Part shown: positions 1,241 to 53,808 of the stretch, one piece after another
Layout of the letters: every line of letters starts with the position of its first letter
Numbering within the stretch: position 1 is the stretch's first letter
From: Lachnospiraceae bacterium
GTDB lineage: Bacteria; Bacillota; Clostridia; Lachnospirales; Lachnospiraceae
DNA: 64,000 nt
Direction of reading: 5' to 3'
NCBI GenBank assembly: GCA_902363445.1
Contig: CABJAB010000005.1
Location: forward strand, 360,669-424,668
Notes under the pieces: generated by a model
The model's input: the letters and a program-made list of their open reading frames with translations, nothing else
What the model was told of the DNA's origin: nothing
Databases searched by the model: none
Translations under genes and position numbers: made by a program

Positions 1241-1966
1241 GGTATGATATAAGATACTTTTGGAATCATTTTTAAATAGTTCCAATAAAACTCCAGTTTA
1301 ACACTGGCAGAAGTTCCGGACCGTCACGATTTCGGTTCGCTGGCGATGCAGGGGCTGCTTTATCCCCGCTCCAGCAGTACCGCTCACATGTCGACAGGAG
1401 TTCTTTATGATTTCCTGTCTCCTGTTCGCTCAGAAACGGAATCGGTATTTCCGTTTCTGCCTCCCTCCACTTGGGGAACACCGGCCGCTGCCCTGCGGCG
1501 CTCGCCTTTAGGCCGGTCCGGAATCATTCTGCCGGTGTCCTGCCTGCTGCGCTGTTCTGGATGATCTCCGTTCCATTGATTCCAAAAAAGAATCAGATTC
1601 CCACACGGCCCGCGCGCCTTACGGCAGCGGGCTGCGGTGGACCGCACCAATGCTTTTAAAACAAATGGGAGCTTATTTCGGTGCGGGAAGAAGAGCAAGA
1701 GGAACGATCCAATTCCATCGTAAGGCGAGCGCCGTCAGGGCGTTAGCAGGATCTTCCCGGCCGCAGGAAGGTAAAAACCGAATATCATGCAGGTTTTTAT
1801 TGGAATCTGACATGGAAAAATATCGATTTATCCATGTCAGTTGGAAAGGACCGACTGGAGGCCGTAAAGATGCTGGTTACGGCTGTCAGCGAGCCGCCTG
1901 GATGGAATCGGATTTCCTCTTGTTTTGTAAATCAAACAAAGAAAACATGTTTGAAAGGTATTCAAA
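1241..1966. repeat. Large modular structured repeat, copy A (full length)
   Basis: Non-coding block of about 0.7 kb that recurs at 45.21-45.90 kb (copy C, full length) and 21.94-22.25 kb (copy B, shortened). Bases 1785-1864 are identical to 45756-45835. Internal hairpins include CAGAAACGGA/TCCGTTTCTG (1431-1459) and CTGACATGGA/TCCATGTCAG (1807-1840). A long closing stem joins 1696-1719 to 1901-1922. Several frames are open across it on both strands, but they overlap each other, lack ribosome binding sites and resemble no protein family I know, so I treat them as accidental. It lies between convergent genes. It could be a structured RNA or a non-autonomous mobile element. Confidence 0.8.
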
Positions 1967-2033
1967 GGTATACCTTGTCGCACGAAGTGCGCCCGCCTGG
2001 AGGGCATGTATTAAGGGATGCCCTTTGGTATAT
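1967..2033 (+). repeat. Short palindromic (REP-like) repeat, copy 1
   Basis: About 65 bp starting with GGTATACC and ending with GGTATA, containing the hairpin CGCAC-GAA-GTGCG and the stem AGGGCAT/ATGCCCT. Related copies are at 22247-22312 (opposite orientation), 41537-41592 (partial) and 45150-45217. It abuts large repeat copy A and ends right at the stop of the convergent IclR gene, so it may also serve as that gene's terminator. Confidence 0.75.
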
Positions 2034-19627: not shown

Positions 19628-20338
19628 GTGAAATTAGTTATCCGGGATTTGAAGAAATCGTTTGACAATAAGGAGGTCCTGAGCGGGGCCGGTTTTTCCT
19701 TTGAGAAGGGAAAGATCTATGGGCTGCTTGGAAGGAACGGAGCAGGCAAGACGACACTTTTTAACTGTATCAATGAAGATTTGGAAATTGATGGCGGAGA
19801 ATTTTTTCTGGAGGGCGAGGACAGCGTAGCGCGGAAGCCTGCGGCGGAGGATATCGGGTATGTGCTGTCCACACCGGTGGTGCCTGAATTCCTGACCGGA
19901 AGGGAGTTTCTTAAGTTTTTTCTGGATATCAACAGGAAACGGATCCAGGAAGTGAGATCAGAGGATGAATATTTTGATTTCATGGATATTGATCAGGAGG
20001 ACAGAGACAGGCTGCTGAAGGATTATTCCCACGGCATGAAGAACAAGATGCAGCTGCTTGTTAATCTGATCGCGGATCCGGCCGTACTTCTTCTGGATGA
20101 GCCCCTCACCTCCTTTGATGTGGTGGTGGCGGAGGAGATGAAGCAGCTGCTCCGGCAGATTAAAAAGGACCATATTATTATTTTTTCCACACACATTATG
20201 GAGCTTGCCCTGGATCTGTGTGATGAGATCGCGGTTCTGAATGGCGGCGTACTGGAGCCGGTCACAAAAGAAAACCTTTCCGACCGTGACTTTAAGGATA
20301 AGATCATACAGGCGCTTAAGGGGGAAGAAAATGATTAG
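19628..20338 (+). CDS. ABC transporter ATPase
   Basis: 236 residues. Walker A GRNGAGKT, signature YSHGMKNK, Walker B VLLLDEP, switch His in STHIM. GTG start with AGGAGG 11 bases upstream. Overlaps its permease by eight bases. GC-richer than the cassette before it, so probably a separate, native unit. Substrate unknown. Confidence 0.88.
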   Translation: MKLVIRDLKKSFDNKEVLSGAGFSFEKGKIYGLLGRNGAGKTTLFNCINEDLEIDGGEFFLEGEDSVARKPAAEDIGYVLSTPVVPEFLTGREFLKFFLDINRKRIQEVRSEDEYFDFMDIDQEDRDRLLKDYSHGMKNKMQLLVNLIADPAVLLLDEPLTSFDVVVAEEMKQLLRQIKKDHIIIFSTHIMELALDLCDEIAVLNGGVLEPVTKENLSDRDFKDKIIQALKGEEND

Positions 20339-21908
20339 TACCTTTAAGACAGGCTTCCGTCTCAGAAATACCTATAAGGCGAACAGCGTGATCTATTCTC
20401 TGAAGCAGATTCCTCTTATAAAAAAGCTGCTGCCGGACCGGTTGTACGCGAGCCGGGGGCTGAAAGTATTTGCCAATGCTGTGGCTGTCTTGTGGGAGCT
20501 TCTGTCGGTATTTCTGGGGAAATTTCTGTATCTTTTGTTTATGGTCTCTCTGATATCCGGACTCATGAAGGCGGAAACGGGAGCCGGATTTTCCCACATT
20601 CTGCTGTTTTTGAGCTTTATCGGAGCTTTTACGAATACGAATCTCTTCAACCCCACAAAGGACAAATATTATGGGATTGTCCTTATGAACATGGATGCCC
20701 GGGAATATGTGGTATCCAACTATTTGTATTTCCTGATCAAGATGATAGTGGGATTCATGCCGTTTATGATCTGGCTCGGGACCAAGGCCGGGTTGTCTCT
20801 GTCGCTTTGTATCTTGTATCCATTTTTTATCGTGGGTTTCAAGCTGGTGATCAGCGCCTGTGTGCTGTGGGATTATGAGAAAAATGGAAAGGCAAGAAGT
20901 GAGAATAACCTGCCGGCGGCGGCTTGGATTATTATGGCCCTTCTGCTGGCGGCGGCGTACGGCCCGCCGATCTGGGGATACGCGCTGGATGAAAGAATCG
21001 TCTGGGCGGCAGGACTTACGGGAATCGTGCTGGGAACCGCGTGCCTTGTCTATGTCCTCCGGTTCCGGAAATACGGCGCCATGTGCCGGAAGATGCTGAG
21101 CGGAACATCCGTGATCTTTTATACGGCGGAAAATAAAAGAGAGATCATGCAGGGGAGCTATCAGAAGAAAATCGATATAACAGCAGAAGCGGAGAGCGGA
21201 AAATCTGGTTTTGCCTATTTTCACGATCTTTTTATGAAAAGACATAGAAAGATATTGATCCGGTCTTCGAAAAGAACGGCTGCCATTCTGCTCCTCCTTT
21301 GGGGGATGATTGCTGCGGTATGCTTGATAAATCCCGAGTTCGGCGTCCAGGTAAACGGGCTGATGCTGACCATCCTTCCATATTTTATGTTTGTGATGTA
21401 TTTGACTAACCGGGGAAAGGTGGTCGCCCAGGCCATGTTCATGAACTGCGACCACAGTATGCTGACATACCGGTTTTACCGGCAGCCTCATGTGATTCTG
21501 AGCCTGTTCAGGGAACGGCTTAAATCAGTGATCTGGCTGAATCTTCCGCCTACGCTGGTCCTGGCCGCTGGACTGCCGCTCTTACTGTATCTGACGGGCG
21601 GTACAGATCAATACATGAACTATGCCATATTGTTTGTGTCCATCCTTTTCATGAGCGTATTTTTCTCTGTCCATAATCTGGTGCTCTATTATCTGCTGCA
21701 GCCCTATAATGTGGAGATTGAGATGAAAAGTATGCTCTACAGCATTGCGGACGGCGTTACTTATCTGGTCTGCTATGTGCTCGTGGGAAAGAGAATCCCG
21801 GTCCTCCTGTTTGGCGTTCTGGTGATCGTTTTCTGCGCGGTGTATATCGTGCTGGCGCTTTTTCTGGTCTACCGGTATGCGCCAAAGACCTTCCGGCTTC
21901 GGAGATGA
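20331..21908 (+). CDS. Large ABC transporter membrane protein
   Basis: 525 residues with about 10-12 hydrophobic segments in two groups separated by a soluble stretch at about residues 255-320, suggesting a duplicated permease that works with the ATPase upstream. Start at the Met after GGGGGA; an upstream in-frame Met at 20241 would lie deep inside the ATPase gene. Not assigned to a substrate. Confidence 0.75.
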   Translation: MISTFKTGFRLRNTYKANSVIYSLKQIPLIKKLLPDRLYASRGLKVFANAVAVLWELLSVFLGKFLYLLFMVSLISGLMKAETGAGFSHILLFLSFIGAFTNTNLFNPTKDKYYGIVLMNMDAREYVVSNYLYFLIKMIVGFMPFMIWLGTKAGLSLSLCILYPFFIVGFKLVISACVLWDYEKNGKARSENNLPAAAWIIMALLLAAAYGPPIWGYALDERIVWAAGLTGIVLGTACLVYVLRFRKYGAMCRKMLSGTSVIFYTAENKREIMQGSYQKKIDITAEAESGKSGFAYFHDLFMKRHRKILIRSSKRTAAILLLLWGMIAAVCLINPEFGVQVNGLMLTILPYFMFVMYLTNRGKVVAQAMFMNCDHSMLTYRFYRQPHVILSLFRERLKSVIWLNLPPTLVLAAGLPLLLYLTGGTDQYMNYAILFVSILFMSVFFSVHNLVLYYLLQPYNVEIEMKSMLYSIADGVTYLVCYVLVGKRIPVLLFGVLVIVFCAVYIVLALFLVYRYAPKTFRLRR

Positions 21909-21937
21909 TAGGCCGGGATCCTTGGCTATTTTCATAT

Positions 21938-22246
21938 GATATAAAATACTTTTGGAATCATTTTCAGTTAATTCCGATTGTTCCAGTCTGACATCGGCAG
22001 AAGTTCCGGGCCGCCCCAATAACTTTTACGACAGATGAGAGCTTATTTCGGTGCGGAAGAAAGAGCAAGAGGAACGATCCGATCCCATCGTAAGGTGAGC
22101 GCTGCAAAGCCGTTGGAAGAATTTTTCCGGATGCAGGGAGGCCGTAAAAATTCTGGTTACGGCTGCCAGCGAGCCGCCTGGATGGAATCGGATTTCCTCT
22201 TGTCTCATCTGATCCATAAGACATATTTGTTTTAAAAGTATTCAAA
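21938..22246. repeat. Large modular structured repeat, copy B (shortened)
   Basis: Keeps the left end (through AGAAGTTCCGG) and the right end (from GAGCTTATTTCGG) of copies A and C but lacks two inner modules. The missing pieces match A 1324-1644, flanked in A by two GGACCG copies, and A about 1773-1860. The closing stem survives between 22066-22089 and 22181-22202. Any reading frame here is shared only with the other copies and has no ribosome binding site. Confidence 0.75.
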
Positions 22247-22312
22247 GGTATACCCAAGGGCATCCCTTAATTTATGCCCTGCGGGCAGGCGCACTTCGTG
22301 CGGCAAGGTATG
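22247..22312 (-). repeat. Short palindromic (REP-like) repeat, copy 2, inverted
   Basis: Near-exact reverse complement of the unit at 1967-2033: AGGGCATCCCTTAAT first and GCACTTCGTGC last, between the same GGTATACC edge and an AGGTAT end. It directly follows large repeat copy B. Confidence 0.75.
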
Positions 22313-41360: not shown

Positions 41361-41536
41361 ACGTTAACTCCCGCAACTTTTAATTTTATAGGGATATTAT
41401 ACTGTCATTTAATATCTCCAGCAAGGAAAAACAGTACCATTTCATCTTTAGATATATAATAGCCTCGGTTCGGTTGACAAGAGGAAGGCCGCTCTTTATA
41501 ATGAAGTAAGGTATACATTACGAAAGAAAATTGAGA

Positions 41537-41592
41537 AAATTATACCTCGACGCACGAAGTACGCCTGCCCGGAGGGCATTTCCTGGTTATAA
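41537..41592 (+). repeat. Short palindromic (REP-like) repeat, copy 3, partial
   Basis: TATACCTCGACGCACGAAGT then ACGCCTGCCCGGAGGGCAT, ending near GGTTATA. Same order as copy 1 but lacking the distal AGGGATGCCC arm. It lies just upstream of the XRE gene rather than beside a large repeat. Confidence 0.65.
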
Positions 41593-41621
41593 GTGATTGC
41601 ATTCGGTAGAGGAAAAATAAT

Positions 41622-44562: not shown

Positions 44563-44584
44563 TTTCCCGGAGATTGTGTATAAT
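44557..44584 (+). promoter_or_regulatory. Candidate fabT promoter
   Basis: TTGTGA, a 16-base spacer, TATAAT, overlapping the end of the ATPase gene. No FabT box is seen here, so no sign of autoregulation. Confidence 0.55.
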
Positions 44585-44647
44585 ATAACTAATGTAATAT
44601 ACAAGAAGAAAAAGGAAACGGCCGTGAGATGCAGGGAGGCAGGCGTC

Positions 44648-45094
44648 ATGGACAGTTACGATACATTTAATCATATATTGGTAAAGCTGTTCAATGATAT
44701 CATGGATATTGAGCAGAAGGCGATTATTACGGATACGTTTAAGGATATTACCAACAACGATATGCATGTAATTGAAGCGATTGGTATCGGCGCGCCTAAA
44801 AACATGTCATCTATCGCCAAGCAGCTTCGTGTAACGACTGGTACGCTCACGATTTCCATGAACAGCCTGGTGAAAAAAGGGTATGTAAAAAGAGAGAGAA
44901 GTGAACAAGACCGCCGGGTAGTGTACATTATGCTGACAGCCAAAGGAAAGCTGGCATATCGCCATCACGAGGAATTTCATAAGAAAATGACCGAAGCTCT
45001 TGTACGGGACATGGATCCTGAGGAGAGCAGGCTTCTTGTTCGGGCCATGACCAATCTGAAGGAATTTTTCGAAGAATATAAAGAGAAGATATGA
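44648..45094 (+). CDS. fabT: FabT-like MarR-family regulator of fatty-acid synthesis
   Basis: 148 residues of the MarR fold and close in pattern to streptococcal FabT: FNDIMDIEQKAI, FKDITNNDMHVIEAIG, KQLRVTTGTLTISMNSLVKK, RSEQDRRVVYIMLTAKG and a C-terminal MTNLKEFFEEYK. FabT binds TTTGA-TAT-TCAAA-type boxes, helped by acyl-ACP, and represses fab genes. Such a box sits at the fab promoter in this window, 40 kb away. Start at the Met after GGGAGG; an upstream in-frame Met at 44576 overlaps the promoter -10. Confidence 0.85.
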   Translation: MDSYDTFNHILVKLFNDIMDIEQKAIITDTFKDITNNDMHVIEAIGIGAPKNMSSIAKQLRVTTGTLTISMNSLVKKGYVKRERSEQDRRVVYIMLTAKGKLAYRHHEEFHKKMTEALVRDMDPEESRLLVRAMTNLKEFFEEYKEKI

Positions 45095-45149: not shown

Positions 45150-45217
45150 AGGTATACCTTGCCGCACGAAGTGCGCCTGCTCGGAGGGCATGAACTAAGG
45201 GGGGCCCTTAGGTATGA
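45150..45217 (+). repeat. Short palindromic (REP-like) repeat, copy 4
   Basis: GGTATACCTTGCCGCACGAA then GTGCGCCTGCTCGGAGGGCA, ending GGGCCCTTAGGTATGA. Same orientation as copy 1, but placed before large repeat copy C, with the GGTATGATA end shared between the two. Confidence 0.75.
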
Positions 45218-45900
45218 TACAAAACACGTTCTGGAATCATTTTTAGTTAACAACAATCAAGCTCCAGCTTAGCATCGGCAGAAGTTCCGGACCGTCACAA
45301 TTTCGGTTCGCTGGCGATGCAGGGGCCGCTTTATCCCCGCTCCGGAAGTACCGCTCACATGTCGGCAGGAAATCTGGATGATTTCCTGTCTCCTGCTCGC
45401 TCAGAAACGGAATCGGTATTTCCGTTTCTGCCTTTCTCCGCATGGGGAACACCGGCCTCTGCCCTGCGGCGCTCACCTTTAGGCCGGCCCGGAATCTTTC
45501 TGCCAGCGCCCTGCCTGCCGCACTGTATTGGGCAAATTTCACTTCTTAGATTCCAGAAAAGGATTGGATATCCACACGGCCCGCGCGCCTAAAGGCTGCG
45601 GCCGCAGTGGACTGCCCCAATGGCTTTTAAAACAAATGGGAGCTTATTTCGGTGCGGGAAGAAGTGCAAGAGGAACAATCCGATTCCATCGTAAGGTAAG
45701 CGCCGCAAGGACGTTAGCAGAATCTTCCCGGCCGCAGGGAGGTAAAAACCGAATTTCATGCAGGTTTTTATTGGAATCTGACATGGAAAAATATCGATTT
45801 ATCCATGTCAGTTGGAAAGGACCGACTGGAGGCCGCAAAGATTCTGGTTACGGCTGCCAGCGAGCCGCCTGGATGGAATCGGATTGTTCCTCTTTTCTAA
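45211..45900. repeat. Large modular structured repeat, copy C (full length)
   Basis: Collinear with copy A over its whole length, including the 80-base identical block 45756-45835. The closing stem is perfect over 23 bp (45668-45690 with 45872-45894). Hairpins 45402-45430 and 45778-45811 match those of copy A. Like copy A it lies between convergent genes (fabT and glgB). Reading frames across it have no ribosome binding sites. Confidence 0.8.
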
Positions 45901-45953
45901 TCTATTGATAAATCGGAAAATCGTATTTTAAAAGGCACTTTAAGGTATATTTT

Positions 45954-47834
45954 CTAGAATTTAAATATGGCTGTCCCATAAGACGGCAGTGGGTACGCGA
46001 AAGAATAATCTCTGTCGTCGCATGGTTTTTTTTGTGAAGTATAAATCGTCTGCTGTTCTTTTCCGAGCAGACCGTGTTCATTGTTAAGCAATAGAGTGAA
46101 TTTCCCCTTTTTCGGTACGCCGACCCGATATTCCGGCCGCGCCACCGGGGTGAAATTGCAGATGACCAATATGTTGTTCCGGCCGGAAGGGCTTTTCCGG
46201 ATAAAGCTGAAAATGCTCCGTTCCGCGTCATTGCAGTTGATCCATTCAAACCCGTTCCAGTCGTAGTCCTCTCCATAAAATGCAGAATATTTTTTATACA
46301 GATGGAGCAGGTCACGGAAATAATCCTTGAGCTCCTGGTGGAGCGGCTCGTTCAGCAAGAACCAGTCGAGCTCCCTGTCCTCGTTCCATTCTCTCAGCTG
46401 TCCGAATTCCTGACCCATGAAAAGAAGCTTCTTTCCCGGATGACCAATCATGAATGTATACCCGGCCTTCAGGCTGGCGAATTTATCCGGGAGCTCACCG
46501 GGCATTTTATTCAGCATGGAGCATTTTAGATGTACCACCTCGTCATGGGAGAGCACCAGGATGAAATTTTCACTGCACGCGTAGGTCATGCCGAAGGTCA
46601 TTTTGCTGTGGTGGTCTTTTCGGAAATAAGGGTCCAATTTCATATATTCCAGAAAATCATGCATCCATCCCATATTCCATTTAAATGTGAAGCCAAGACC
46701 ACCGTATTCCGGCGGCTCCGTCACCTGAGGCCATGCCGTGGATTCTTCCGCTATGATCATGCTGCCTGGATTCCGGCGTTTCATGATACTGTTCAAATGT
46801 TTAAAGAATTCAATGGCTTCCAGGTTTTCGTGTCCGCCGTGGATATTCGGGACCCACTGTCCGTTTTGCTTACCGTAATCCAGATAGAGCATTGAAGCGA
46901 CCGCGTCCACGCGCAGACCGTCCACATGAAAATTTTCTATCCAATAAAGAGTGTTTGCGATTAAAAAGTTAGATACTTCATGCCTGCTGTAATCGAAGAC
47001 TTTCGTGCCCCAGTCAGGATGTTCCCCTTTTCTGGGATCGGAATATTCATAGAGCGGAGCGCCGTCGAAGTTTGCCAGTCCATGGGCATCTTTCGGGAAA
47101 TGGGCCGGTACCCAGTCCAGAATGACGCCGATGCCTTTTTTGTGCAGATAGTCGATGAAGTATTTAAAGTCCTCCGGTGTCCCGTAGCGGGAAGTGGGGG
47201 CATAATAGCCAGTCACCTGATATCCCCAGGAACCGTCGAAGGGATATTCTAAAAGTCCCATGATCTCCACATGGGTGTACCCCATATCCTTTATGTATTC
47301 TGCCAGCTCCCGGGCCAGCTCTCTGTAAGAAAGAAAGCTTTCACCGCGCCTTTTCCAGGAGCCAAGATGAATCTCGTAAATGGAAAGTGGTCCAAGAGTG
47401 GGAAGGCTGTTTTTCCGTTTTTCCATCCAGCGGCTGTCGGACCATTTATAATCTGTACAGCCGCAGATCCGGGAAGCTGTACCGGGGCGGAGTTCTGCTT
47501 GAAAAGCGTAGGGATCGGCCTTGTAAAGAAGCTCTCCTGTTTGTGTGGTGATGACATATTTGTAAAGATCTCCCGGCTTGGCCGAGGCGGTAAAAAGCTC
47601 ATAGATCCCAGATGAGCCTATGGGAGTCATGATATGCTCGTCGGGAGCCCATTCGTTGAATTCCCCTGATACGGCCACGGAAACGGCATGCGGGGCCCAC
47701 ACCGCGAAATAGACGCCTTTTTTGCCGCGGCGGGTCGTCGGATGTGCTCCGAGTTTTTCGTAGATATTATAATGAGTACCTTCTCCGAACAAATAACAGT
47801 CGGTCTCTGTGATAAACCCTGTTGTGTTCCCCAT
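45954..47834 (-). CDS. glgB: 1,4-alpha-glucan branching enzyme (GH13)
   Basis: 626 residues. N-terminal CBM48-like domain (VYFAVWAPHAVSVAVSGEFN), then the GH13 barrel: DWVPAHFP, GLRVDAVASMLY with the nucleophile Asp, IAEESTAWP with the acid/base Glu, and LSHDEV; a C-terminal beta domain. Transfers alpha-1,4 chains to form alpha-1,6 branches in glycogen. The Met used lies five bases after the amylase stop; a TTG five codons earlier is possible. Operon with the amylase, but no other glg genes are near. Confidence 0.93.
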   Translation of the reverse strand: MGNTTGFITETDCYLFGEGTHYNIYEKLGAHPTTRRGKKGVYFAVWAPHAVSVAVSGEFNEWAPDEHIMTPIGSSGIYELFTASAKPGDLYKYVITTQTGELLYKADPYAFQAELRPGTASRICGCTDYKWSDSRWMEKRKNSLPTLGPLSIYEIHLGSWKRRGESFLSYRELARELAEYIKDMGYTHVEIMGLLEYPFDGSWGYQVTGYYAPTSRYGTPEDFKYFIDYLHKKGIGVILDWVPAHFPKDAHGLANFDGAPLYEYSDPRKGEHPDWGTKVFDYSRHEVSNFLIANTLYWIENFHVDGLRVDAVASMLYLDYGKQNGQWVPNIHGGHENLEAIEFFKHLNSIMKRRNPGSMIIAEESTAWPQVTEPPEYGGLGFTFKWNMGWMHDFLEYMKLDPYFRKDHHSKMTFGMTYACSENFILVLSHDEVVHLKCSMLNKMPGELPDKFASLKAGYTFMIGHPGKKLLFMGQEFGQLREWNEDRELDWFLLNEPLHQELKDYFRDLLHLYKKYSAFYGEDYDWNGFEWINCNDAERSIFSFIRKSPSGRNNILVICNFTPVARPEYRVGVPKKGKFTLLLNNEHGLLGKEQQTIYTSQKKPCDDRDYSFAYPLPSYGTAIFKF

Positions 47835-47838
47835 AAAT

Positions 47839-49188
47839 TTACCCCACAATTTCTAATATTTTGCTTTCACAACCAGACAGATGAAGACTGAGGTGATTGT
47901 TTTCAATCAACATATTCTCACCTGTCTGCAGATCGATGGCCCGGCTTCCGCCCATGGGAAGGGAGAAAGACAGATCGGCGGCGCCGTCATCGATATTGAC
48001 GGCGATGATAATATGCTCATTCTCGGCTGAACGGCAGAAAGCGTACTGCCGGTTCGTCAGAAACAGTTCTTTGTATGCTCCGGTACACAAGGCAGGATGG
48101 GCTTTGTGTATGCGGGCCAGCTTTGCGACGTAGTCTGTCAGCCCGGTATGGTATTCCGGGAACTGGTCGGGCGATATGGCAGGACGGAGCATGTCGTCGC
48201 AATATGGAGTACGCGCTCCCTCGATTCCCCATTCCGAGCCGTAATAAATGGAGGGGATCCCAGGCAGAGTAAATAACATGGTGTAAACAGTTGTGATGTG
48301 ATTCTTGTTTTTGAGCTTGCTCATGATCCGGTCTTCATCGTGATTGTCCACGAAGGTATACAGATTGATATTCCGGTAGATACCGCCGTTCTGTTCGGAC
48401 TGGCGCCGGATGGTATGAGCGATTTCGAAACAGTTATAATCATTATGACCGGAATAAAGCCCCTTGTGGAGTTCATAATTGGTCACAGAATGAAGCATGG
48501 ATTCATTGGCCCAGCGGCTGTAGTCGCCGTGGATAACTTCTCCCATAAGCCAGAATTCCGGCTTCAGCCGGCCACAGTGGGACCGAAGCGCATTCATAAA
48601 ATCAAAATCCAGGACATTGGCACAGTCCAGACGGATACCGTCAATATCAAATTCCTGTACCCAGAATGAAACTGCACTGAGGAGGTAATCCCGCACCGCG
48701 GGATTTCTCAGGTTGAGGGCGGCCAGTTCATAATGCCCCTGCCACGCTTCATAAGTGAAGGAGTCTCCCAGAGGGCTGTCCTGCCAGAAGTTCACATTTT
48801 TATACCAGTCTCTGTAAAGAGAGCCGTCTCGCTTTTCTTGGATATCCCGGAAGGCAAAAAACTCCCGGCCTGTATGGTTAAAGACGCCGTCCACTACCAC
48901 ACGGATGCCAGACTCATGGCACAGGCTCACAAATTTCCGGAAGTCCTCGTTGGCGCCCAGACGCCTGTCCACCAGGCGGAAGTCCCGGGTATCATAGCCA
49001 TGGGTAGTGGATTCAAATAAAGGGCCGATGTAGATGGCCGAAGCACCCAATTCTTTGATATGGGGAATCCACGCATCCAGCTGTTTAAAACGCCCCTCAG
49101 TCTGTTCTTCTCTATTTTCTTTTGGCGCGCCGGTCATCCCCAGCGGATACATGTGGTAAAAGACACTGCTGTCATACCAGGCTGACAT
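47839..49188 (-). CDS. Cytoplasmic alpha-amylase-family glycosidase (GH13)
   Basis: 449 residues, no signal peptide. GH13 motifs: VVVDGVFNHTG, GIRLDCANVLD (nucleophile Asp), LMGEVIHG (acid/base Glu) and FVDNHDEDR. Probably hydrolyses maltodextrin or glycogen-derived oligosaccharides inside the cell. Start after GGGAGG. Upstream gene of the pair with glgB. Confidence 0.9.
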   Translation of the reverse strand: MSAWYDSSVFYHMYPLGMTGAPKENREEQTEGRFKQLDAWIPHIKELGASAIYIGPLFESTTHGYDTRDFRLVDRRLGANEDFRKFVSLCHESGIRVVVDGVFNHTGREFFAFRDIQEKRDGSLYRDWYKNVNFWQDSPLGDSFTYEAWQGHYELAALNLRNPAVRDYLLSAVSFWVQEFDIDGIRLDCANVLDFDFMNALRSHCGRLKPEFWLMGEVIHGDYSRWANESMLHSVTNYELHKGLYSGHNDYNCFEIAHTIRRQSEQNGGIYRNINLYTFVDNHDEDRIMSKLKNKNHITTVYTMLFTLPGIPSIYYGSEWGIEGARTPYCDDMLRPAISPDQFPEYHTGLTDYVAKLARIHKAHPALCTGAYKELFLTNRQYAFCRSAENEHIIIAVNIDDGAADLSFSLPMGGSRAIDLQTGENMLIENNHLSLHLSGCESKILEIVG

Positions 49189-49481: not shown

Positions 49482-49643
49482 GGCACTCTCTCCTCTCATC
49501 CCCAAGTATGCCAAATTCTGGAGAAAATTATACTTGACAAATCTTTTTTTATCATGCATAATCTAAATCACCAATTCAAACCAGCCCGTTTTCAGGGCGA
49601 TTATCCCAAGTAGATTAATTGAATAAAGGAATGGAGGATGCCG

Positions 49644-50219
49644 GTGAAGTGGCTGCTTTTGGTAGTCTGCGGCCTGGCGGCGCTGTCGGATATTATGGAG
49701 CGCCGTATACCAAATTTCTGGCTGATGGCCTGGTTCCTGACCGGGATGCTTCTTTCTGGGACAGCATGGCTTGATTTTTGTTCCCCGGAGGCATTTCTTT
49801 GCCGAATACCTTCTTTAGGCAGGATAACTGCCCGGGCAGGCTCAGAAGCCGGAATCCTGTGTTATTTGTTCCGTGCGGCTGCAGTGTTTTTGACACTTCA
49901 TCCCTTGTGGACACTTCGTGTGATAGGGGCGGGAGACATTAAACTATGCTGTATCATGGGAGCCTGGATGGGAATATCAGCATTTGCCGGATGTTTCTTT
50001 TGCAGCCTGATCTCAGGAGGAGCCATGGCGTTTTTGCATATGGTCCGATATCGCATCATATTTCAAAGATTTTCTTATTTTCTGGCCTGGTTCAGGCAAT
50101 GTATCTCCAAAAAACAATGGATCGTTTATCTTAAACCGGAGGAAGCGGATAAAAGAAATACCATACCGTTTTCAGCCGCTCTTACGCTGGGCTATATTTT
50201 GTGGATGATGATTGCCTGA
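49644..50219 (+). CDS. tadV: Prepilin peptidase (TadV/CpaA-type, A24)
   Basis: 191 residues, about six TM spans. Active-site Asp residues in LSDIMERRIPN and GAGDIKL. Processes Flp-type prepilins. Start assigned to GTG, six bases after GGAGG; the ATG at 49638 touches that site. First gene of the Tad pilus locus. Confidence 0.82.
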   Translation: MKWLLLVVCGLAALSDIMERRIPNFWLMAWFLTGMLLSGTAWLDFCSPEAFLCRIPSLGRITARAGSEAGILCYLFRAAAVFLTLHPLWTLRVIGAGDIKLCCIMGAWMGISAFAGCFFCSLISGGAMAFLHMVRYRIIFQRFSYFLAWFRQCISKKQWIVYLKPEEADKRNTIPFSAALTLGYILWMMIA

Positions 50220-50295
50220 CGATTTAGATAAGGAGGAGCCGGCAGCAGAAAGAATTCGGAAATCAAAACGCTGCAAAGAAGACTGGAGGAATAAT

Positions 50296-51330
50296 ATGGG
50301 CGGGCGCCGCAGGCGATTTGGAATATACGACAGAGAAGCGGAGTACGCAAGAAGACTCGGCAGCTACTTACGCAGACGCTGCGGGGATATGCTGGAGATT
50401 AAAATTTTTACCAGATTAGAGACACTTGATAGCTGTCTCGCAGGCGAAGGGCTTGATATGGCTCTGGTGGGGCAGGAAGCGGCAGAGCTGTGCCGGAACT
50501 GCCGGGGCCTGTGGTTTGCCGTACTGACGGAGAAAGGAGGCGGAAATGGTTTTTCGGACGATGGAACAGACATCCCGCAGATAGACAAATACCAATCGGC
50601 AGAACAGATCTGGAAACGGATCCTGGAATTGGAAGGAGGAGTGTTCATGGAAGGGGAAGGTGACCGGGGCGACGGAAATACGGTTTCCTTCTTGGGTATC
50701 TGTTCGCCGGCACATGGCTGTGGAAAGACTTCTTTGGGACTGATCATGAGCCGGATTCTGGCGGAGCAGAAAAAGGTGCTGTTCCTTACGCTGGATGAAT
50801 TTTCAAGCTTGTCTTTTCTGGTTGGAGAGGAAATGCAGGAAGAAGCAGAGCTGTCAGAGCTTTTTTATTATTACAGCCAAAAAGAATTGACAGGCGCCAG
50901 GATCCAGGCCGCTGCCGGCCGGTGGGGACAGGCGGAATATATTTATCCGGTCAAGATTCCGGAGGATCTGTACCAGGATAACATGCCATATGAACCTGGG
51001 TTTTTTCTGGAGCTGGCGAAACGGGGAGGATATGAGCTGGCAGTATTGGATTTGGGAGAACACGCTTATGGAAAGGAACATTTGATGAGGCTATGCGGCC
51101 GGCTGTTTGTTCCGGGACGGGAAACGCCGGCGGATGAAATGAGGATCAGCATGTTTCTGGAATGGCTCCAGGAGAGAGGAATGGGAGAGCATGCGGTCCG
51201 GTGCCGGATACCGGCTGGGTCTGAAGATATCAGGAGATACAGTCTTATAAAAGCTTTTCATGGCCAGATGGGAAGCTATGCCAGGGAACTGCTTTGCAGA
51301 TATGGATACAGCCAGGGGGTGGAGGGATGA
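50296..51330 (+). CDS. TadZ/CpaE-like pilus localisation ATPase
   Basis: 344 residues. An N-terminal receiver-like region (about 1-110) and a ParA/MinD-like domain whose P-loop reads CSPAHGCGKTSLG, a divergent Walker A. TadZ proteins place the Tad secretion apparatus at the pole. Start at the Met after GGAGG rather than upstream in-frame Mets. Overlaps tadA by four bases. Confidence 0.75.
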   Translation: MGGRRRRFGIYDREAEYARRLGSYLRRRCGDMLEIKIFTRLETLDSCLAGEGLDMALVGQEAAELCRNCRGLWFAVLTEKGGGNGFSDDGTDIPQIDKYQSAEQIWKRILELEGGVFMEGEGDRGDGNTVSFLGICSPAHGCGKTSLGLIMSRILAEQKKVLFLTLDEFSSLSFLVGEEMQEEAELSELFYYYSQKELTGARIQAAAGRWGQAEYIYPVKIPEDLYQDNMPYEPGFFLELAKRGGYELAVLDLGEHAYGKEHLMRLCGRLFVPGRETPADEMRISMFLEWLQERGMGEHAVRCRIPAGSEDIRRYSLIKAFHGQMGSYARELLCRYGYSQGVEG

Positions 51331-52232
51331 AGGGTGAATTACAGGCAGAACAGACAGCAGAACGGAGACGAAAAACAGAGCTAAAGGAAGAGAGTCGGGA
51401 AGCCCTTCCGGGAGAGAGTATGGAACAGCAGCTGCGTAAACTTCTGCTGGATCGCCTGGAGAAAGAGGGGCAGGTGGAGGACAGCCGTCTTTTGGAGTTC
51501 ATTGACGAGGAAATCGTCGTGGCGAGCAGAAGAAATAAAATTCCGCTGGACCGGAGGATTCCGCTGCGTGCGAGCTTGTTTAACAGTCTGAGGCGTCTGG
51601 ATGTGCTTCAGGAGTTTCTGGAGGACGAGACCGTTACGGAGATCATGGTGAACGGAGCGGACAGCATTTTTCTGGAGCGGAAGGGAGTGCTGCTGGAAAG
51701 TGATAAGAAATTTTCTTCCCGGGAAAAGCTGGAAGACGTCATACAGCAGATTGTATCCCGGGTCAACCGGACCGTCAATGAAGCCAATCCCATAGTGGAT
51801 GCCCGACTGGAGGACGGATCCCGGGTCAATGTCGTACTGCGGTCCGCCGCGCTCAACGGTCCGGCTGTGACGATTCGGAAATTTGGAAAGAAATGCTTCT
51901 CTTTGGATCATTTGGTGTCGGCCGGGACGATAACACAGGAGGCGGCAGACTTTTTAAAAGACAGTGTACGGGACAGAAAAAACATATTTGTCTCAGGAGG
52001 CACGGGAAGTGGGAAAACTACGTTTTTAAACGCCCTGTCCGCCTGGATTCCCAGCGGCGAACGAATAATCACCATAGAGGATTCAGCGGAACTGCAGATT
52101 CAAAACGTGAAAAATCTGGTCCGGCTGGAGGCCAGAAGAGCCAGCGGAGAAGGAGAGAAAGAAATCACCATTCGGGATCTGATAAAGACAGCCTTGAGAA
52201 TGCGTCCAGATGGACGCAATATAAAAATATGA
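51327..52232 (+). pseudogene. tadA: tadA/cpaF secretion ATPase, interrupted by prophage
   Basis: The first ~295 residues of the Tad-type traffic ATPase: ETVTEIMVNGADSIFLER, Walker A GGTGSGKTT, Asp-box TIEDSAELQ, then IRDLIKTALRMRPD. Family homology stops after the Asp at 52209-52211, just before the expected RIIVGEVRG Walker B region, and the frame runs six codons into prophage DNA to a stop. The rest of the gene should lie at the far prophage end. As it stands the ATPase lacks Walker B and the pilus is presumably not made unless the element excises. Confidence 0.9.
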
Positions 52233-52233
52233 G

Positions 52234-53808
52234 CTAAAGGGTAACAAAAAGCTCGTTGCCATCCCAAACACAATCTTTTATAACAGAACGGGCTATACGG
52301 TTGCGTTCGGAGGGTGTAAAGCCATCAAAATTATGAAGCAAGTTGAGGATTATCTCTTGTTTTTTATTGGTATCCAGTTCTTCCTGTTTGGAGAAGCGTT
52401 CAGCAGCTTGGGCGGTTGCAATCTGGTGGCTGATATCCGCAAGAGAAGAATCAAGGCGTTCCATTTCTGCCACAATGTATTTGACGGCTGGAGAATCTGG
52501 AACGGTTGCCAAATTCTCTGCAAGTTGCTTTATTTTTGTTTCTATATTTAGATATTGACGGTTAAGTGATTTTATATCGATATGTTTCACGCCATTAGCT
52601 TGTCGATTCAAATATTTGTTAATAAGACTGGGATCGTGTTCTATATCACGAAAAATATCTATAACTTTTTCGTCGAGAAGGTCAATTTTAATTTGGGAGC
52701 GATCGCAATACTCTATTCCCTGGCGAACACGTCTAGGGCAATAATACCAGGAGGAAATCCCCTTATTCTTTTTCTTACGGCTGACAGACATCAAACGTCC
52801 ACAAGAACATCTTAAGACTCCTTTCAGCAATGGAACATCGTATTTCATTGATTTATCAAATACATTATGGGTAAATTGTTCTTGTACACGTAACCATTTT
52901 TCAGCTTTAATGTACGGCTTGTGACGGCCGATGCAGACTAACCACTTCTCAGGTGGGTTAAGCTGATGTTTCTTATTTTTTTCTGTTGTTCGGCCATAGA
53001 TCATGACTCCATATTTACCGTCCCACTTTTCACGGGGGGAATTTATATCCATCATACAGCCCTTATTTTTATAAAAGTCGTATATCTCAGGCGTGGCCTC
53101 TACGCAGTACGGCATTGTAAGGATTTGGCGGAGCTGACTTACAGAAAAGAACTTTCCATTTTTGGTGTAGATCTCATTGCGCTTAAACTGGGTCTCCAGC
53201 TTTTGCAAGGATTGCTTTTGACTTAAAAAAACATCATAAATCCATTCAATATATGAGGCTTCTTCGGGAATCGGCTCAATGATTACATGCTTTTTCCCGG
53301 TTTCAGAAATACACTGGACCCTTTTATAACTGATGGGAGGATTTCCACCGACCCACCACCCGTTTTTGGCAAGCCCAGTCATATTATCAGCGATACGATT
53401 TGAAGTTGTATCGAGTTCCATTTGGGCAAATACCACTATAATAAACATCATTGCCCGGCCTATGGGAGTGGAAGTATCAATATTTTCTTTGACAGATACA
53501 AACTGTACGTTATGTTCCGCCATGACATCATAAATATTTGAGAAATCCCGAATGTTTCTGGATAGCCGATCAATCTGATATACAATCAAGACATCAATAA
53601 TTCCGGATTTTATGTCTGAAATAAGCCGTTTTAAATCTGGACGATTGGTATTAGATCCGGTGTATGCTTCATCTTCATAGATCAGAAAAGAATCCACCTG
53701 ACCAGGGAAGTGAAGATCGGCATACTCACGGGACATCCGCGCTTGATTTTTGGTACTGTCGCTTTTGTCAGAGTAGACAGATTTTCTCGTATAATTTGCA
53801 AAAACCAT
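52234..53808 (-). CDS. int: Large serine recombinase (integrase)
   Basis: 524 residues. N-terminal resolvase domain with catalytic Ser in YTRKSVYS and DRLSRN; recombinase domain; zinc ribbon CSCGRLM...YYCPRRVRQGIEYC; coiled coil at about 400-470. Catalyses attP x attB integration. It ends two bases after the truncated tadA frame, placing it at attL. Start after AAAAGGAGG. Confidence 0.95.
   Translation of the reverse strand: MVFANYTRKSVYSDKSDSTKNQARMSREYADLHFPGQVDSFLIYEDEAYTGSNTNRPDLKRLISDIKSGIIDVLIVYQIDRLSRNIRDFSNIYDVMAEHNVQFVSVKENIDTSTPIGRAMMFIIVVFAQMELDTTSNRIADNMTGLAKNGWWVGGNPPISYKRVQCISETGKKHVIIEPIPEEASYIEWIYDVFLSQKQSLQKLETQFKRNEIYTKNGKFFSVSQLRQILTMPYCVEATPEIYDFYKNKGCMMDINSPREKWDGKYGVMIYGRTTEKNKKHQLNPPEKWLVCIGRHKPYIKAEKWLRVQEQFTHNVFDKSMKYDVPLLKGVLRCSCGRLMSVSRKKKNKGISSWYYCPRRVRQGIEYCDRSQIKIDLLDEKVIDIFRDIEHDPSLINKYLNRQANGVKHIDIKSLNRQYLNIETKIKQLAENLATVPDSPAVKYIVAEMERLDSSLADISHQIATAQAAERFSKQEELDTNKKQEIILNLLHNFDGFTPSERNRIARSVIKDCVWDGNELFVTL

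What the first reader, a model, noticed from the sequence alone, without database searches (positions are those of the whole stretch)
1241..1966. Undescribed-looking 0.7-kb modular repeat, three copies in 64 kb
Copies at 1241-1966, 21938-22246 and 45211-45900 share long, well-conserved stretches (80 identical bases at 1785-1864 versus 45756-45835) yet encode no plausible protein. They contain many perfect hairpins and always sit in intergenic space after genes. Size and hairpin density fit a large ornate RNA or a non-autonomous mobile element. I could not place it in OLE, ROOL, GOLLD, HEARO or group II introns by eye, and no group II domain V is visible.
Basis: partly seen in the sequence, partly recalled or inferred. 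Interest (0 to 1): 0.85.

Follow-up and report, generated by a model that had tools for sequence, protein, structure and literature searches.

The report
Palindromic non-coding repeat in Lachnospiraceae
A 0.7-kb stretch of non-coding DNA, able to fold back on itself many times, is scattered between the genes of this bacterium and some relatives; it looks like a passively copied mobile element, although a role as an RNA is not ruled out.

Summary
Three related copies lie between genes at 1243-1972, 21935-22252 and 45213-45949. Copies 1 and 3 are 86% identical, with an 80-base identical run; copy 2 has two internal gaps.

The repeat is non-coding: differences do not favour third codon positions, and 34 database ORFs from other copies lie in several frames of both strands. 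It matched no Rfam family, phage or plasmid record. The ORFs place it in Lientehia hominis NSJ-141, Qiania dongpingensis and metagenome contigs. The related loci that hold both flanking genes (3 for copy 1, 1 for copy 3) lack it.

The fold is far more stable than shuffles, but equally on both strands. Between window copies, stem changes break pairs about as often as chance. A separate 64-bp palindromic repeat touches one end of every copy.

Best reading: a new family of non-autonomous dispersed palindromic repeats, now decaying. The mobilising enzyme, terminal repeats and target duplications were not shown. A structured RNA remains possible; the main hint is a strongly covarying hairpin element in another genome (G339) that shares one 31-bp hairpin.

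The parts
1243..1972 (+). copy 1 of the large repeat, between a ferredoxin-like gene (787-1173, +) and an IclR-type regulator gene (2034-2804, -)
1969..2032 (+). small palindromic repeat D5 at the right end of copy 1 (shares GGTATA with it)
21935..22252 (+). copy 2, with two internal gaps of about 320 and 90 bp relative to copies 1 and 3
22249..22312 (-). D5 at the right end of copy 2, inverted
45213..45949 (+). copy 3, between a MarR-type regulator gene (44576-45094, +) and glgB (45954-47849, -)
45153..45216 (+). D5 at the left end of copy 3
45668..45894 (+). core rod of copy 3: 23-bp perfect inverted repeat, arms 45668-45690 and 45872-45894
1785..1864 (+). 80 bases identical to copy 3; includes a near-perfect palindrome at 1807-1840
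41536..41603 (+). degenerate D5-like sequence standing alone

Best explanation
A new family of large (about 0.73 kb) non-coding, palindrome-rich dispersed repeats in a group of Lachnospiraceae. Shown: scattered copies, no coding constraint, dense inverted repeats, absence from the syntenic related loci that could be compared. Inferred: the copies were spread as DNA by an enzyme supplied in trans, stayed between genes where they do little harm, and now decay by substitutions and by deletions inside hairpins. The 64-bp D5 repeat is a second, separate small palindromic element that is found at the ends of the large one, probably by preferred insertion there (inferred).
For: Three scattered copies, 86% identity between the full ones. 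Differences by codon position 1/2/3 of 2/6/7, 7/13/6 and 6/10/8 show no protein constraint. 34 of 34 database ORFs match the window copies, in both strands and with frame switches in several; at least three lie in Lientehia NSJ-141 and at least two distinct ones in Qiania. The element is missing from 3 of 3 loci that hold both flanks of copy 1 (of 9 fetched) and 1 of 1 for copy 3. Stability is the same on both strands, z -10.4 and -10.8, and G-U changes are not favoured consistently over A-C changes. Copy 2's second gap is flanked by GGAGG-type short repeats in copy 3.
Against: No convincing terminal inverted repeats: best shuffles P 0.093, 0.017 and 0.467 for the outer 30 bases of copies 1, 2 and 3, and 0.630, 0.060 and 0.933 for 60 bases. 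No target duplication or exact empty site could be aligned. No transposase with these ends was found; the host genome is not held. Conservation is uneven, with an 80-base identical run, which plain decay does not explain. Paired bases change less than unpaired ones in 5 of 6 comparisons.
Confidence: 0.6

Rival explanations
1. A large structured RNA present in several copies, made from the + strand after the upstream gene, with side domains that can be lost.
For: Very stable folds; same orientation to the upstream gene in 3 of 3 copies; fewer substitutions in paired bases in 5 of 6 comparisons, 4 compensatory changes against 1.1 expected in one of 6 (P 0.02), fewer broken pairs than expected in one of 6 (P 0.02) and in two of 6 with confident pairs (P about 0.04). 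The hairpin element of G339 covaries strongly.
Against: For confident pairs of the two full copies, 1 compensatory and 14 broken against 0.65 and 15.5 expected, and 1 and 11 against 0.46 and 11.0. No consistent G-U preference. Equal stability on the other strand. No Rfam match. Promoter-like sites are no more frequent than in shuffles. Copy 2 has lost one side of the stem that closes the 5' domain (my reading).
Confidence: 0.2
2. A deletion derivative of a known type of insertion sequence, for example of a kind without terminal inverted repeats, whose ends only are recognised by that element's enzyme.
For: No clear terminal inverted repeats, hairpins close to the left end, several copies without an ORF.
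Against: No transposase-like ORF in the element in any of six frames long enough to test was recognised by eye (these short frames were not run against Pfam), and no partner element could be looked for.
Confidence: 0.12
3. A 3'-end signal: terminator or mRNA-stabilising hairpin for the genes around it.
For: Copies 1 and 3 (with D5) fill the space between convergent genes up to 1 and 4 bases from the opposing stop codon.
Against: Terminator-like sites inside the large element: one on the minus strand of copy 1 (1307-1293), none in copies 2 and 3; D5 of copy 1 holds one more. Relatives' loci do without the element.
Confidence: 0.05
4. A short protein-coding gene.
For: An open frame of 70 to 153 codons runs through the 3' half in all three copies and in database proteins.
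Against: Codon-position test; frame switches and opposite-strand ORFs; the ORF set was found by searching with that frame, so its conservation is biased.
Confidence: 0.02

Closest known systems
MITEs of prokaryotes (review PMC10969869, section 3 read)
   Same: Non-coding, several scattered copies, palindromic, no transposase
   Different: Copies 1 and 3 exceed the 50-500 bp of the review; no convincing terminal inverted repeats; no partner transposon known
REP / palindromic extragenic repeats (PMC3733652, listing and start of abstract only)
   Same: Palindromic, extragenic, repeated; D5 resembles them more than the large element does
   Different: 20-40 bp there, against 0.73 kb and 64 bp here; tag not searched
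BOX-type modular repeats of Streptococcus pneumoniae (recalled)
   Same: Intergenic structured repeats with variable inner parts
   Different: Not compared by sequence here
Large ornate RNAs OLE, ROOL, GOLLD, HEARO (recalled; Rfam searched)
   Same: Size and density of hairpins
   Different: No Rfam match at gathering score, and none of them among matches up to E 5

Membership tests
MITE | No transposase gene, several copies | tested here: met
MITE | Size 50-500 bp (PMC10969869) | tested here: not met
   copies 1 and 3 are 730 and 737 bp; copy 2, 318 bp, would fit
MITE | Terminal inverted repeats | tested here: inconclusive
   9-bp match near the ends of copy 2 (P 0.017), not significant in copies 1 and 3
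MITE | Target-site duplication | tested here: inconclusive
   no alignable empty site
MITE | Related autonomous transposon | not testable with these tools
   host genome not held
Known RNA families (Rfam 15) | Covariance-model match | tested here: not met
   none at gathering score in the window; best below it are unrelated, E 0.7-3.8
Structured RNA in general | Covariation of paired bases | tested here: inconclusive
   no excess for confident pairs of the full copies; weak signals elsewhere
Structured RNA in general | Transcript | not testable with these tools
   no expression data
REP | 20-40 bp palindrome | tested here: not met
   large element 0.73 kb, D5 64 bp
REP | GTAG or CGTC tag at one end | not tested
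   not searched

The most novel reading that the evidence does not exclude
The repeat belongs to a wider, undescribed class of large multi-hairpin elements in Lachnospiraceae whose paired structure is actively maintained, as RNA or as single-stranded DNA during transposition. Genome G339 has an intergenic element with a 31-bp hairpin 94% identical to that of copy 3; its two copies keep their pairing through 7 compensatory changes, and each has complementary outer arms of quite different sequence.
Probability: 0.17. Interest if true: 0.7.

Novelty: new member of a known kind. Interest (0 to 1): 0.38.

Why it matters
It adds a repeat family that I could not find described to cultured gut Lachnospiraceae, and it explains six annotated 'hypothetical proteins' of Lientehia NSJ-141 and Qiania dongpingensis as chance frames of a non-coding repeat. 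If its structure proves to be maintained, it would be a new class of mobile or RNA element, testable at once on the complete Qiania genome.

Tried and rejected
Coding sequence: rejected. Known RNA families: no match. Phage or plasmid origin: no match in phages or plasmids with copy 1 or copy 3; none in viral contigs by exact patterns or a degenerate peptide (70 stretches, none confirmed).

Further DNA copies: an exact 22-mer found nothing in genome contigs. Eight whole-genome searches covered 8, 11, 397, 295, 397, 135, 397 and 328 genomes; the sets overlap, the number of distinct genomes is not known, in the large sets only 2 to 12 candidates per genome were scored, and none had a positive control. 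Hits: one of 44 bp in G354, which lies in what looks like a gene and was set aside; and one of 31 bp in G339 (the same), kept as a lead. The Qiania and Lientehia genomes were not reached, so no DNA of the other copies was seen. In one search only the 7996 candidates sharing most words were scored.

Alignment weakness: about 40 bases beside copy 2's large gap are misplaced in the alignment behind, so counts with copy 2 are rougher than copy 1 versus copy 3. A 2-base indel near 1915 is misplaced too; one search leaves those columns out, searches do not, so their counts of broken pairs are slightly too high.

Print: searches for 'miniature inverted-repeat transposable' with Lachnospiraceae (3 papers), 'intergenic repeat' with Lachnospiraceae and palindrom (0), five RNA terms with Lachnospiraceae (0), MITE/REP review terms (24, 12 listed), Qiania dongpingensis (3), NSJ-141 (1), Lientehia (11, 8 listed). 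No listed title or abstract start names this repeat. Seen: passages of PMC8140505 and PMC10989990, passages and section 3 of PMC10969869; the others as listings only.

Full report
Observation. The three copies are real. Identity is uneven: 50 of 50 bases in 1793-1842, 33 of 50 in 1543-1592. Copy 2 (21935-22252) keeps both ends but has gaps of about 320 and 90 bp. In copy 3 the second gap has GGAGG at both edges, as expected of a slippage deletion; the first seems to lie between two CAAT-containing stretches (my reading with family D6). The first gap removes one side of the long stem that closes the 5' domain in the folds of copies 1 and 3, which speaks for damage rather than tidy loss of a module.

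Not a protein. An open frame runs through the 3' half of all three copies. Within it, differences at codon positions 1/2/3 are 2/6/7 (copies 1 and 3), 7/13/6 (1 and 2) and 6/10/8 (3 and 2), so there is no sign of protein constraint. Such chance frames are predicted as proteins in databases, and I used them to find other copies: 12 proteins, 8 more with a profile and 14 from the opposite strand, 34 in all. All 34 match the window copies; they use both strands, and several switch frame inside. Named sources are Lacrimispora sp. NSJ-141 (LQE92_04510, 04815, 12515), which PMC10989990 describes as Lientehia, and three proteins of Qiania dongpingensis; both strains came from human faeces (passages). 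The others are mostly short metagenome contigs of unstated origin, plus two ORFs on one 518-kb NCBI contig. Two of the Qiania ORFs cover the same part with different sequence, so that genome has at least two copies; the three of NSJ-141 have distant locus tags or different contigs.

Distribution and insertion. The host genome is not held. The nearest relative reached by glgB (L001, 81% identical protein) has the same gene order around copy 3 but only a short spacer, without the element. For copy 1, three of the nine fetched ferredoxin loci also hold the gene on the other side, and none shows the element (L092, L094, L096). No copy was found in the eight whole-genome searches with the element or its profile, nor in viral, phage or plasmid collections. 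The genome searches had no positive control, as the tool itself warns.

Structure. The + strand folds at z -10.4, -4.9 and -7.0 for copies 1, 2 and 3, the - strand of copy 1 at -10.8. A 23-bp perfect inverted repeat closes the core rod of copy 3. Between copies, pairs are hardly better preserved than under a null that redistributes the same substitutions. For confident pairs: 1 compensatory and 14 broken against 0.65 and 15.5 (copy 1 to 3), 1 and 11 against 0.46 and 11.0 (copy 3 to 1); the two comparisons from copy 2 have somewhat fewer broken pairs than expected, P 0.04 each. With whole minimum-energy structures, one of six comparisons has more compensatory changes than expected (4 against 1.1, P 0.02) and one has fewer broken pairs (15 against 19.9, P 0.02); paired bases change less than unpaired ones in 5 of 6. 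Changes to G-U against changes to A-C number 30:20, 16:12 and 14:22 (probability 0.5) or 11:11, 9:7 and 6:11 (0.9), so neither strand is favoured consistently. I read this as decay of an originally very palindromic sequence with at most a weak residue of structural maintenance.

The small repeat D5. A 64-bp palindrome of the form TATACC...GGTATA touches all three copies: right of copy 1 (+), right of copy 2 (-), left of copy 3 (+). ORFs P0012 and P0021 run on into it in the orientation of copy 2 (E 1e-13 and 5e-15); P0001 (8 residues) and P0029 (6 residues) show only short matches. P0015 and P0016 seem to reach the right end without it (my reading). A degenerate copy stands alone at 41536-41603. 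The relative G011 has six D5 matches at E up to 0.0013 and no match to the large element; the other 10 genomes of that genus have none better than E 0.09. One G011 copy seems to interrupt a reading frame (L108, my reading). So D5 is a separate element, and its presence at the ends of the large one suggests preferred insertion there, which is inferred.

The G339 lead. A 31-bp hairpin of copy 3 (45362-45392) recurs at 94% in genome G339 (E 8.4e-6 for one genome; the same hit). Copy 1 has a degenerate version of it (77% over the same 31 bases), and the hairpin pattern occurs once in the window, in copy 3. In G339 it lies in a long inverted repeat with a second copy, 151 of 188 columns identical. 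These two keep their pairs strikingly: 7 compensatory and 3 broken of 65 compared, against 1.35 and 13.1 in the null, reached by 0 of 5000 shuffles; in the other direction 6 and 0 of 60, against 0.83 and 9.3. Their outer arms differ in sequence although each set is complementary (read by eye). Whether this is the same family is open: one hairpin is shared, two copies are known, and correction of palindromes by template switching could produce the same pattern.

Verdict. A real, non-coding, palindromic repeat family in Lachnospiraceae that I could not find described (searches in Tried and rejected). It works most likely like a non-autonomous mobile element. It is not filed as a MITE, because the size was not met in two of three copies and terminal repeats and target duplication were not shown; nor as an RNA, because the covariation tests gave no clear support and no transcript data exist here.

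Noticed in passing
1969-2032, 22249-22312, 45153-45216, 41536-41603; G011 loci L101, L107-L111: D5, a 64-bp palindromic repeat TATACC...GGTATA, found at one end of every copy of the large repeat and alone in a related genome, there sometimes apparently inside genes.
   Followed up: partly
L112:1370-1720 and L114 about 1480-1740 (genome G339): Another large intergenic inverted repeat with two copies, strong compensatory changes, quite different outer arms, and one 31-bp hairpin shared with copy 3.
   Followed up: partly
proteins P0015, P0016, P0022, P0030, P0032, P0035: Six annotated 'hypothetical proteins' of Lientehia NSJ-141 and Qiania dongpingensis match this non-coding repeat and are probably not real proteins.
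   Followed up: yes
window 52234-53808 (-): A large serine recombinase gene (Resolvase, Recombinase and zinc-ribbon domains), next to an ion-channel gene and an HTH regulator gene; possibly a mobile segment.
   Followed up: no
window 49638-52232 (+): A prepilin-peptidase-like gene, an unassigned gene and a type II/IV secretion ATPase gene in a row.
   Followed up: no
window 20241-21908 (+): A 555-aa protein without Pfam or NCBIfam match, after ABC-transporter ATPase genes; relatives at 44-47% identity in 8 of 9 genomes searched.
   Followed up: no
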